A DNA stretch of 39,236 bases, from the NCBI GenBank assembly GCA_020438425.1, contig JAGQUQ010000007.1, positions 1-39,236 on the forward strand, in the 5' to 3' direction. The translations under genes were made by a program, and so were the position numbers. Shown one piece after another: positions 1,919 to 11,553 of the stretch. Every line of letters begins with the position of its first letter. The stretch's first letter is position 1. The stretch comes from Solirubrobacterales bacterium. Lineage in GTDB: Bacteria; Actinomycetota; Thermoleophilia; Solirubrobacterales; 70-9. The notes under the pieces were generated by a model. It saw only the letters and a list, made by a program, of their open reading frames with translations. It was not told where the DNA came from and did no database searches.

Positions 1919-3479
1919 TCCCGTTCTGGAAGGCGTAGGCGAGCGAATCGACCAGCGCCTCCCAGGAGGCTTCGATGATGTTCTCCGAAACTCCGATCGA
2001 TCCCCAGGAGTCGCCGCCGTCCTCGCGTCGCGAATCGAGCAGAACCCTGGTGCCGGCCCCGGTGCCGTGGGCAGTGTCGAGGATCCGGACCCGGTAGCCG
2101 GTCAGCTCGATCTTGCTGAGTTCCGGGTAATGGAGGGTTATCGCCTGTCGCAGCGCCCGGTCGAGGGCATTGACCGGGCCGTTGCCTTCGGCCACTTCGA
2201 CGTAGCGCTCGTCCCCGACCTTGATCTTCACTATCGCTTCGGTCTCGACCGGCGCACCGGCCCGCTTCTCGGTCTGGACCTTGAAGGACTCGAAAGTGAA
2301 AAGCGGCTTGAACTCTCCCGCCTCCTGGCGGAGCAGCAAGTCGAACGAGGCCTCGGCCGCCTCGTAGTGGTAGCCGTCATGCTCCTTCTGCTTCAGGGTC
2401 TCGACCGCGTCGCGGGCCGCGGCGTCATCCAACTCGAGCCCGATCTCCTCGGCCCGGGCAAGCACGGTCGCCTTGCCCGACAGTTCCGATGCCAGGACCT
2501 TGCGGGCGTTGCCGACCGCCTCGGGATCCATGTGCTCGAAGGTGCGGGCGTCGGCGGCGATACCGGCGACATGCATGCCTCCCTTGTGAGCGAAGGCGTT
2601 CTTTCCCACGTAGGCCTGATCGGGATCGACGGCCACGTTCAGCAGGTCGGCCACGAAATGCGAGACCGAAGAGAGCTCTTTCATGTTCTCCGGCGGAACC
2701 ACCTCGTAACCCATCTTCAGCTGAAGCGAGGGCAGGATCGAGATCAGGTTCGAGTTGCCGCAGCGTTCCCCGTAACCGTTGACAGTTCCCTGAACCTGCC
2801 TCGCTCCGGCATCGACCGCGGCCAGGGCGTTGGCGACGCCACACTCGGCGTCGTTGTGACAGTGGATGCCAAGCTCCGATTCGGGCAGCGCCGAACGGAC
2901 CTCGCCAACCGCCGCGGCGATCTGATCCGGAAGGTGGGCGCCGTTGGTGTCGCAGAGCACGAGGACTTCGGCGCCGGCCTCGTGAGCGGCCTTCAGACAC
3001 TCCAGCGAGTAGTCCCGGTCATCGCCCCAGGCATCGAAGAAGTGCTCCGCGTCGTACATGATCCGCTTGCCTTCGCCGCGCAGGAAGGCAACCGACTCGC
3101 CGATCATCGCCAGGTTCTCCTCCCGGGTCACCTTGGTCACCTTCTCGAGGTGAAGCGACCAGGTCTTGCCGACCAGGGTCACGACCGGAGCGAAGGTGGA
3201 GGCGAGCAGCATGAGGGCCTCGTCCTGATCGGCCTCCACCCCGCGACGGCGGGTCATGCCGAAGGCGCAGATCGCCGCCTGCTCGAGCTTCTCTTCGGCC
3301 AGGAGTTCGAACAGTTCCGCTTCCTTGGGGTTCGAAGCGGGAAATCCCGCCTCGATGAACTGGACGCCGAGGGCGTCGAGGGCGTGAACCACCCGCACCT
3401 TCTCCGCCGCGGAAAGGGACATGCCCTGCCCCTGCATGCCGTCGCGGAGGGTCGTGTCGTAGAGCTTCACCGATGTCAT
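1896..3479 (-). CDS. cimA: (R)-citramalate synthase
   Basis: Condenses pyruvate with acetyl-CoA to citramalate, giving 2-ketobutyrate for isoleucine without threonine. The 527-residue protein has the DTTLRDGMQ motif (8-16) and the HCHND metal site (206-210) of the DRE-TIM family. A C-terminal LeuA-type dimerisation/regulatory domain runs from about residue 390 to the end. It resembles the long CimA subfamily (Clostridium/actinobacterial type) rather than LeuA, which is encoded separately at 9796-11382. The ATG has a GAAAGG Shine-Dalgarno about 9 bases upstream. The gene lies after ilvE with a 150-base gap that holds hairpins and a possible isoleucine leader ORF, and its 3' end overlaps the DegT gene. 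Homocitrate synthase is a less likely alternative given the leuBCD neighbours. Confidence 0.88.
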   Translation of the reverse strand: MTSVKLYDTTLRDGMQGQGMSLSAAEKVRVVHALDALGVQFIEAGFPASNPKEAELFELLAEEKLEQAAICAFGMTRRRGVEADQDEALMLLASTFAPVVTLVGKTWSLHLEKVTKVTREENLAMIGESVAFLRGEGKRIMYDAEHFFDAWGDDRDYSLECLKAAHEAGAEVLVLCDTNGAHLPDQIAAAVGEVRSALPESELGIHCHNDAECGVANALAAVDAGARQVQGTVNGYGERCGNSNLISILPSLQLKMGYEVVPPENMKELSSVSHFVADLLNVAVDPDQAYVGKNAFAHKGGMHVAGIAADARTFEHMDPEAVGNARKVLASELSGKATVLARAEEIGLELDDAAARDAVETLKQKEHDGYHYEAAEASFDLLLRQEAGEFKPLFTFESFKVQTEKRAGAPVETEAIVKIKVGDERYVEVAEGNGPVNALDRALRQAITLHYPELSKIELTGYRVRILDTAHGTGAGTRVLLDSRREDGGDSWGSIGVSENIIEASWEALVDSLAYAFQNGNAGASGD

Positions 3480-4648: not shown

Positions 4649-5737
4649 CTAGCCCTGACCCAGTTCGGCCAGGACCGCTTCCGTCACTTCTTCCGTTCCC
4701 ACGCGGGTTTCGCCTTCTCCGCCTTCGTAGATGTCCGGCGTGCGAAGCCCCCTGGCCAGCACCGCGTCGACCGCGTTGTCGATCCGGTCGGCGGCTTCGC
4801 CGTCACCGAGGCCGTAGCGCAGCATCATCGAGGCCGAAAGCATTGTGGCGAGCGGATTGGCGACTCCCTGACCGGCGATGTCGGGGGCGGAACCATGGAC
4901 CGGTTCGAAAAGACCGGGTTCTCCTTCGGCCCCGATCGAGGCCGAGGGCAGCATGCCGAGCGAACCGGTCAGCATCGCCGCTTCGTCGCTGAGGATGTCG
5001 CCGAACAGGTTCTCGGTCACGAGAACATCGATCTCGGCCGGCGCGGAGACCAGCTTCATCGCGGCGAAGTCAACCAGCAGGTGGTCGAGCTGAACGTCCG
5101 GATAGTCCTCAGCCACCTTCTTGACCGTCTCCCGCCAGAGCCGCGAGCTCTCGAGCACGTTCGCCTTGTCGACCGAGAGCACGCGGGGGCTGTCGGAACG
5201 CTGGCGGGCGGCTTCGAAGGCGGCCCGGGTGATCCGTTCGATCTCGGCGACCGAGTAGGCGCACTCGTCGTAGGCCACGGTCCCCTCATCGCGACGACCC
5301 GAATCACCGAAGTAGATCCCTCCGGTGAGTTCGCGGACGACCAGCAGGTCGGTGCCGTCGATCAGTTCCCTCTTGAGCGGGCTGGCGTCGATCAGGGCCG
5401 GCGAAGGCTTGACCGGACGCAGGTTCGCGTAAAGACCGAGCGCCTTGCGAATACCGAGCAGACCCTGCTCCGGCCGGGGAGCGGTCGGATCCTTGGCCAC
5501 AGCTTCATCCCACTTCGGTCCACCCACGGCTCCAAGCAGCACGGCGTCGGAAGCCTTGCAGGCTTCGATCACCTCGTCGGTCAGGGCCACTCCGTGCTCG
5601 TCAATGGAAGCGCCGCCGATCAGGTGTTCGGTGTACTCGAAATCACCGACCGCATCGAGAACCTGCCGGGTCGCGCCGACGATCTCGGGGCCGATCCCGT
5701 CTCCGGCGAGGACGACAATTTTCCGGGTTTCACTCAT
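4649..5737 (-). CDS. leuB: 3-isopropylmalate dehydrogenase
   Basis: NAD-dependent oxidative decarboxylation of 3-isopropylmalate to 2-ketoisocaproate, the third dedicated step of leucine synthesis. The protein has 362 residues. It shows the GDGIGPEI N-terminus, the substrate-binding [10 protein letters not shown] segment, the [15 protein letters not shown] block with the catalytic lysine, and the [21 protein letters not shown] cofactor motif. These match LeuB rather than isocitrate or tartrate dehydrogenases. Its ATG lies 8 bases inside the 3' end of the methyltransferase gene, so the two are translationally coupled. ilvE follows after 68 bases. Confidence 0.96.
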
Positions 5738-11385: not shown

Positions 11386-11482
11386 CTTCTCCTTCTGAAT
11401 CAAATCCTGGTGAATCTTGCTTTCAGCTCGCGGCTATCGCGCCGCCCGGCGATCAATCCCCCCAGAGGGGGAGAAGGAGAAG
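11386..11482 (-). promoter_or_regulatory. Candidate leucine-responsive translational attenuator of leuA
   Basis: The leuA ribosome-binding region at 11386-11396 (minus strand AGAAGGAGAAG) is perfectly complementary over 11 bases to the leucine-codon run of the leader peptide at 11472-11482. Between them lie a small hairpin (ccccc 11459-11463 / ggggg 11467-11471) and a second one (gcggc / gccgc, 11430-11445) that would bring the two segments together. A ribosome stalled on leucine codons would cover the blocking strand and free leuA. A ribosome that moves on would let it pair and shut leuA off. The complementarity is seen; the mechanism is inferred. Confidence 0.68.
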
Positions 11483-11512
11483 AAGGGCCGGGCTGTTGAA
11501 ACGGTGATTCAT
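11453..11512 (-). CDS. leuL: Leucine leader peptide of leuA (19 residues)
   Basis: The ORF encodes MNHRFNSPALLLLLPLWGD: five consecutive leucine codons (CTT CTT CTC CTT CTC), then proline and a sixth leucine. Its ATG is 11 bases downstream of a promoter -10 and it ends 70 bases before the leuA ATG. This is the hallmark of a leucine-sensing leader, functionally comparable to enterobacterial leuL. There is no good Shine-Dalgarno, but the short 5' end suggests near-leaderless translation. Confidence 0.78.
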   Translation of the reverse strand: MNHRFNSPALLLLLPLWGD

Positions 11513-11523
11513 TCCGAGTGCCT

Positions 11524-11553
11524 AGCGTAGCGCAGTGACCGGAGACAGTTCAA
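11524..11553 (-). promoter_or_regulatory. Likely promoter for leader peptide and leuA
   Basis: Minus-strand -35 TTGAAC (11548-11553) and -10 TACGCT (11524-11529, TAnnnT form) are separated by 18 bases, overlapping the stop codon of the upstream oxidoreductase gene. Transcription would start about 5 bases before the leader ATG. Read-through from serC-serA is also possible. Confidence 0.5.

What the first reader, a model, noticed from the sequence alone, without database searches (positions are those of the whole stretch)
11386..11512. Leucine leader peptide whose leucine-codon run is the anti-Shine-Dalgarno of leuA
The leader ORF MNHRFNSPALLLLLPLWGD has six leucine codons. The minus-strand RNA of the run (11472-11482) pairs perfectly over 11 bases with the leuA ribosome-binding region (11386-11396), with small hairpins in between. 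Sensor and blocker are the same bases: ribosomes stalled for lack of charged leucine tRNA would expose the leuA site, while fluent translation would let it close. Leader-peptide control of leuA is known in enterobacteria and has been proposed for actinobacteria; this minimal direct codon-to-ribosome-site pairing is the most striking regulatory design in the window.
Basis: partly seen in the sequence, partly recalled or inferred. Interest (0 to 1): 0.85.

Follow-up and report, generated by a model that had tools for sequence, protein, structure and literature searches.

The report
Leucine-codon lock on leuA translation start
Just before a leucine-making gene, this actinobacterium carries a tiny gene whose run of leucine codons can base-pair with and hide the ribosome-binding site of the leucine gene, so a ribosome short of leucine would open the lock; the idea was proposed for other actinobacteria in 2005, and here it is found across a whole class on a different RNA scaffold.

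Summary
On the minus strand, leader ORF MNHRFNSPALLLLLPLWGD (11512-11453) has its leucine run (11482-11472) perfectly complementary over 11 nt to the leuA Shine-Dalgarno (SD) region (11396-11386). Only 4/5000 dinucleotide shuffles match this; 2/400 Leu-only synonymous recodings reach the native pairing (0.99). All 73 leaders analysed from the order have a leucine run there. In the window's family (41), modelled SD-leader pairing is 0.87 against 0.41 after synonymous recoding; SD accessibility is 0.08 unoccupied, 0.56 with a ribosome stalled on the leucine codons, 0.07 at the stop. The leader is probably leaderless; no terminator is present. Between the arms lie a conserved hairpin and a covarying pseudoknot. 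The Thermoleophilia version has a different scaffold, which a model search did not find in Actinomycetes, and sits on a non-orthologous leuA type (once on leuS). In sister families the stem has shifted, so 'sensor and blocker are the same bases' is clade-specific. Leucine response is untested.

The parts
11524..11529 (-). -10-like box TACGCT, 11 nt upstream of the leader ATG (predicted TSS about 11517, near-leaderless)
   Evidence: TANNNT ending 6-13 nt upstream of the leader start in 71/73 order leaders vs 7/1206 random positions (listed). The start choice among in-frame ATGs used the box, so slightly circular.
11453..11512 (-). leader peptide ORF MNHRFNSPALLLLLPLWGD + TGA
   Evidence: Leu-run leaders at the same place in all order relatives analysed
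11471..11485 (-). leucine codon run CTT CTT CTC CTT CTC (sensor)
   Evidence: Positions -1 to -4 before the Pro codon are 96-100% Leu in 73 leaders, mostly CTT/CTC
11472..11482 (-). 5' arm of base stem P1 (anti-SD) inside the leucine run
   Evidence: perfect 11-bp complement of 11396-11386
11457..11471 (-). hairpin P2, CCCCC-UCUG-GGGGG, overlapping the end of the leucine run and the PLWGD end of the leader
   Evidence: 98% of cells paired over 45 sequences; preserved when frame or stop codon changes (L008, L012, L014, L064)
11430..11453 (-). H-type pseudoknot: AUCGC (11453-11449):GCGAU (11440-11436) and GCGGC (11445-11441):GCCGC (11434-11430)
   Evidence: found in 67/73 order relatives, 77/102 across the class vs 4% of shuffles, with CGC:GCG to GCG:CGC swaps and GCGGC:GCCGC to GCCGG:CCGGC, GCGCC:GGCGC, CCGGG:CCCGG changes
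11386..11396 (-). leuA Shine-Dalgarno region AGAAGGAGAAG = 3' arm of P1
9796..11382 (-). leuA, type-I 2-isopropylmalate synthase (the regulated gene)
   Evidence: NF002086 755 bits, TIGR00973 695 bits, both over cut-off; TIGR00970 (type II) 142 bits, under cut-off

Best explanation
A translation-attenuation leader. The near-leaderless leader mRNA is translated from its 5' AUG. When charged leucine tRNA is plentiful the ribosome runs through the leucine codons to the stop, 15 nt beyond the end of the five-codon run; the run is then free and pairs with the leuA SD (stem P1, enclosing hairpin P2 and a pseudoknot), closing leuA. When leucine tRNA is short the ribosome waits on the leucine codons, covers one strand of P1, and the SD stays open. 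Shown here: the parts, their conservation, selection on synonymous codons for the pairing, conserved inner structure, absence of a terminator. Inferred: leader translation, stalling, and the response to leucine.
For: Leu-run leader at the same place in every order relative analysed and in the rest of the class. Window family (n=41): P(SD paired with leader) 0.87 native vs 0.41 synonymous, Wilcoxon p 2.5e-11; SD accessibility 0.08 free, 0.56 stalled at Leu, 0.07 at stop. 25 of 28 further leaders, mostly from other families of the class, also exceed their synonymous mean. Leu identity is kept in frame even where the pairing is lost (L027: CTA CTT TTG CTC, P=0.01), so the codons matter beyond pairing. 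Compensatory changes at the P1 ends: CUACUCCUU:AAGGAGUAG (L018), ACUCCUUCU:AGAAGGAGU (L020, L022), GACUUCUCCUU:AAGGAGAAGUC (L012), UGCUUCUCC:GGAGAAGCA (L010). No terminator. The core model finds one place in the genome, this one.
Against: P1 covariation in the window's own family is weak. In 32 sister-family leaders native SD pairing does not exceed synonymous recoding (0.49 vs 0.49), though a longer stem there covaries strongly (0/5000). Species are related, so p-values overstate independence; the ribosome footprint is modelled as a simple unpaired mask. In S. coelicolor, leuA leader mutations were reported as not consistent with classical attenuation (cited in PMC1262725). No expression data were available for this organism.
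Confidence: 0.7

Rival explanations
1. The structure is a protein-binding site: a regulator binds the stem/pseudoknot and controls SD access; the leucine run is a sequence constraint or relic (the reading preferred by Seliverstov et al. for the LEU element).
For: Conserved pseudoknot and hairpin beyond what the lock needs; Streptomyces leader mutants reported as not fitting classical attenuation.
Against: Leu identity of the codons is retained in frame with third-base changes, also where the pairing is lost (L027); -10 box conserved at a distance that fits leaderless translation.
Confidence: 0.12
2. Transcriptional (possibly Rho-dependent) attenuation: leader translation controls termination before leuA, and SD pairing is secondary.
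For: Some other Actinomycetota leuA leaders have Leu runs followed by hairpin + U-run terminators (for example L195, L199, L200, L201, L225-L227), so the ancestral logic may be transcriptional. Untranslated leuA mRNA could also be cut by Rho.
Against: No intrinsic terminator in the window element; none evident in the relatives' leaders as read.
Confidence: 0.09
3. The pseudoknot is a riboswitch aptamer (e.g. for leucine) with the Leu-run:SD helix as its base stem.
For: Compact structure with a base stem that holds the SD.
Against: Inner helices swap between pair types and loops vary; no conserved unpaired pocket seen; no Rfam family matches.
Confidence: 0.04
4. Chance complementarity: CTC/CTT leucine codons resemble the anti-SD, so any such run pairs with any SD.
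For: Swapped runs and SDs within the family pair nearly as well as native pairs.
Against: Genome-typical synonymous Leu codons rarely give this pairing (2/400; 41-leader test); 4/5000 shuffles.
Confidence: 0.05

Closest known systems
LEU element upstream of leuA in Actinobacteria (Seliverstov, Putzer, Gelfand, Lyubetsky 2005, PMC1262725)
   Same: Upstream ORF with a leucine-codon run; base stem formed by that run and the leuA SD; pseudoknot inside the base stem; no obvious terminator.
   Different: Here the inner scaffold is a C5-tetraloop-G5 hairpin plus a small 3-5/5-bp pseudoknot, not the long CCGCGNCGRGGG/CCCYCGNCGCGG-type helix seen in Actinomycetes; the gene is type-I leuA, not the type-II (TIGR00970) leuA of Actinomycetes; model R1 finds no Actinomycetes leader above chance (best E 0.92 at such a leader).
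Leaderless LeuL1 leader of Streptomyces lividans leuA, MRFGLLLLSCRGEGL (PMC8079986)
   Same: Leaderless short ORF with a Leu run, no typical intrinsic terminator, before leuA; Leu run followed by RGE as in many Thermoleophilia leaders.
   Different: Non-orthologous leuA type and different downstream RNA.
Polycysteine leaderless short ORFs of mycobacteria (Canestrari 2020; seen here only as cited in PMC9031893 and PMC13236596)
   Same: Leaderless sensor ORF with a codon run controlling translation of the downstream operon.
   Different: Cysteine, different operon; experimentally tested, unlike this one.
Classical leucine leader-peptide transcription attenuators (leuL/leuA of enterobacteria; Streptomyces leuS)
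   Same: Leucine codon run as sensor of charged tRNA-Leu.
   Different: They work by a terminator/antiterminator pair; no terminator is present here.

Membership tests
LEU element (PMC1262725) | Located upstream of leuA | tested here: met
LEU element (PMC1262725) | Upstream ORF encoding a run of leucine codons | tested here: met
LEU element (PMC1262725) | Base stem formed by the leucine run and the leuA SD | tested here: met
   window and its family; shifted in sister families
LEU element (PMC1262725) | Pseudoknot enclosed by the base stem | tested here: met
   H-type pseudoknot with compensatory swaps, but of a different size and sequence; the paper's figures were not readable here, so the helices could not be compared one by one
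LEU element (PMC1262725) | Common descent with the Actinomycetes elements (sequence/structure homology) | tested here: not met
   R1 does not match the L210-L224 leaders above chance; the phylum search finds it almost only in the class. Absence of a match with one model does not prove separate origin.
LEU element (PMC1262725) | Co-occurrence with the ML1624-type helicase | not tested
   -
Leader-peptide translation attenuator | Sensor codons whose occupancy frees a sequestered SD | tested here: met
   structure model only: SD accessibility 0.08 to 0.56
Leader-peptide translation attenuator | Leader is translated and downstream expression responds to the amino acid | not testable with these tools
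   needs profiling or reporters
Classical transcription attenuator | Rho-independent terminator between leader and gene | tested here: not met

The most novel reading that the evidence does not exclude
Thermoleophilia and Actinomycetes arrived separately at the same direct lock (leucine codons = anti-SD of leuA) on two non-orthologous leuA genes, using unrelated pseudoknot scaffolds; in Thermoleophilia the cassette is modular and also sits before a type-II leuA and before leuS.
Probability: 0.4. Interest if true: 0.65.

Novelty: new variant of a known kind. Interest (0 to 1): 0.5.

Why it matters
The LEU element has been an open question since 2005: the same stem could be read as a ribosome-operated lock or as a protein site. 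A clade in which synonymous codon choice visibly maintains the lock, next to sister families in which the stem has moved, gives direct, cheap tests of which reading is right. It also suggests that a sensor codon run can itself be the blocker, a very compact way to build amino-acid control, and it adds a class-wide RNA element for which no Rfam family matched.

Tried and rejected
Duplex-energy swap test for the window's family: no signal (3327/5000), because polypyrimidine runs and polypurine SDs all cross-pair; a contiguous Watson-Crick version gave a weak signal. RNAalifold on an order-wide alignment finds P2 and part of the next helix only, since the linker does not align. Rfam, gathering and relaxed: nothing relevant. 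The generic promoter scan found nothing. tRNA-Leu(GAG), the expected reader of CTT/CTC, was not among the tRNAs found in the 83%-complete assembly; several other tRNAs are missing too, so this says nothing. My first scan for leader starts used a wrong frame and was redone. In Actinomycetes type-II leuA leaders the SD:leader test was mixed (about 6 of 15 above the synonymous mean) with uncertain start sites, so no conclusion was drawn. The weak phylum hit in G593 (L142) is not near a leuA and was taken as chance.

Full report
Observation. The minus strand carries a 19-codon ORF, MNHRFNSPALLLLLPLWGD, at 11512-11453, followed by leuA at 11382-9796 (leuA confirmed by NF002086 and TIGR00973). The leucine run contains CTTCTCCTTCT (11482-11472), an exact 11-nt complement of the leuA SD region AGAAGGAGAAG (11396-11386). 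The unconstrained fold forms this helix. A complement this long to the SD region arises in 4 of 5000 dinucleotide shuffles of the leader and linker. The run uses CTT and CTC, whereas CTT is 6% and CTG 48% of Leu codons in five window genes; recoding only the Leu codons with that usage reaches the native SD-pairing probability (0.99) in 2 of 400 trials.

Taxonomy and conservation. Close relatives are Solirubrobacterales metagenome-assembled genomes. All 73 leaders analysed from the order (41 in the window's family, the window's own included, and 32 in other families) have a Leu-run ORF upstream of leuA, nearly always at the same distance. The four codons before the conserved Pro codon are 96-100% Leu, mainly CTT/CTC. 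The peptide end LP(L/P)RGE seems to follow from an RNA hairpin rather than the reverse: where the frame or the stop changes (L006, L008, L012, L014, L064, L091) the CCCC-loop-GGGG hairpin stays. A TANNNT box ends 6-13 nt upstream of the leader start in 71 of 73, against 7 of 1206 random positions, which fits a leaderless transcript; the choice among in-frame ATGs used this box, so the figure is somewhat favoured.

Inner structure. Between the arms lie hairpin P2 and an H-type pseudoknot. In the window the pseudoknot is AUCGC:GCGAU interleaved with GCGGC:GCCGC. The first helix is CGC:GCG in most of the window's family and GCG:CGC in the sister families, a compensatory swap of three pairs. Across the class the second helix also appears as GCCGG:CCGGC, GCGCC:GGCGC, CCCGG:CCGGG and CCGGG:CCCGG; the pseudoknot is detected in 77 of 102 sequences against 4% of shuffled ones. 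Column counts on 45 sequences give 99% paired cells for P2 and the second helix.

The lock. In the window's family, the mean probability that the SD pairs with the leader is 0.87, against 0.41 for synonymously recoded leaders (Wilcoxon p 2.5e-11, relatedness not corrected). With a 30-nt ribosome mask on the Leu run, SD accessibility rises from 0.08 to 0.56; with the mask on the stop codon it stays at 0.07. Twenty-eight further leaders, mostly from other families of the class, show the same tendency in 25 cases. Compensatory changes occur at the ends of the helix (L010, L012, L018, L020), but the swap tests are weak within the family (435/20000 for contiguous complement; not significant for duplex energy), as expected when the SD is itself held by 16S rRNA.

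Sister families. In 32 leaders of other Solirubrobacterales families the SD is not preferentially held by the leader compared with recoded leaders (0.49 native, 0.49 recoded). Instead a longer rod forms: the Leu run pairs with GGAGA-like sequence some 20-40 nt before leuA, and leader codons upstream of the run pair with sequence that reaches towards or into the SD, for example CGCUUCG:CGAAGCG (L076), ACCUACG:CGUAGGU (L075, L078), CCUGCG:CGCAGG (L066, L085, L088). Own arms pair better than all 5000 shuffled assignments (-30.3 vs -27.1 kcal/mol). A ribosome waiting on leucine would still melt this stem, so the logic may be kept while 'sensor and blocker are the same bases' is lost.

Spread. A covariance model of the core (R1) finds only this place in the host genome, is found in most genomes of the order and, more weakly, in the rest of Thermoleophilia upstream of leuA. 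It does not detect the Actinomycetes elements, which precede a type-II leuA (TIGR00970) and use a different long helix. Leucine-run leaders precede leuA in many other Actinomycetota too, some with hairpin + U-run terminators. In one order member in which no full type-I leuA was found the core sits before leuS (L240, TIGR00396 937 bits), and in another a second copy precedes a type-II leuA (L241).

Prior knowledge. Seliverstov et al. (PMC1262725) described upstream of actinobacterial leuA a leader ORF with a Leu run, a base stem between that run and the leuA SD, and an enclosed pseudoknot, and called it the LEU element. They judged classical attenuation unlikely because of Streptomyces mutants and favoured a protein site. 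Leaderless LeuL1 is reported in S. lividans (PMC8079986), and a leuA leader in C. glutamicum (PMC4046766) and C. diphtheriae (PMC5784534). Leaderless polycysteine ORFs act as attenuators of downstream translation in mycobacteria (Canestrari 2020, as cited in PMC9031893 and PMC13236596). No paper in the held library joins 'leader peptide' and 'Thermoleophilia'.

Verdict. It works like a leader-peptide translation attenuator of the LEU-element design. Membership: the functional features are met; shared ancestry with the Actinomycetes element was tested with one model and not found. The design is known as a prediction; the Thermoleophilia scaffold, the synonymous-codon evidence, the shifted sister architecture and the leuS/type-II placements appear new. 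Leader translation, stalling and leucine response remain inferred.

Noticed in passing
L240 (G050:C85), leader near 4942 minus strand: The leader core precedes leuS (not leuA) in a genome without a full type-I leuA; the SD complementary to its Leu run (GCUCCUG:CAGGAGC) belongs to a 15-codon ORF whose stop overlaps an ATG of leuS, and a type-II leuA follows.
   Followed up: partly
L241 (G048:C97), leader near 2470 minus strand: A second copy of the leader core in the window's family precedes a type-II leuA, next to the usual copy before type-I leuA elsewhere in the genome.
   Followed up: partly
L242 (G250:C50) 322 and 1445: Two near-identical copies of the leader element 1.1 kb apart, the second directly before leuA: a local duplication.
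   Followed up: no
L195, L199, L200, L201, L225-L227: leuA leaders of other Actinomycetota have a short Leu run, then a hairpin and a G-rich stem followed by a U run: ordinary-looking transcription attenuators, on both leuA types.
   Followed up: partly
L155, L156, L158, L164, L165: In some Thermoleophilia families the leuA SD is GGGGAG, the same sequence as the 3' arm of hairpin P2, so SD and P2 may compete for the same CUCCCC.
   Followed up: no
L071 309-485: Two inverted-repeat units (ATGCGGATNATTCGG...CCGAATGAT) are inserted between leader and leuA.
   Followed up: no
window 1935-3473 minus strand: A citramalate synthase (TIGR00977, 632 bits, over cut-off), suggesting isoleucine synthesis by the citramalate route near leuA.
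   Followed up: no
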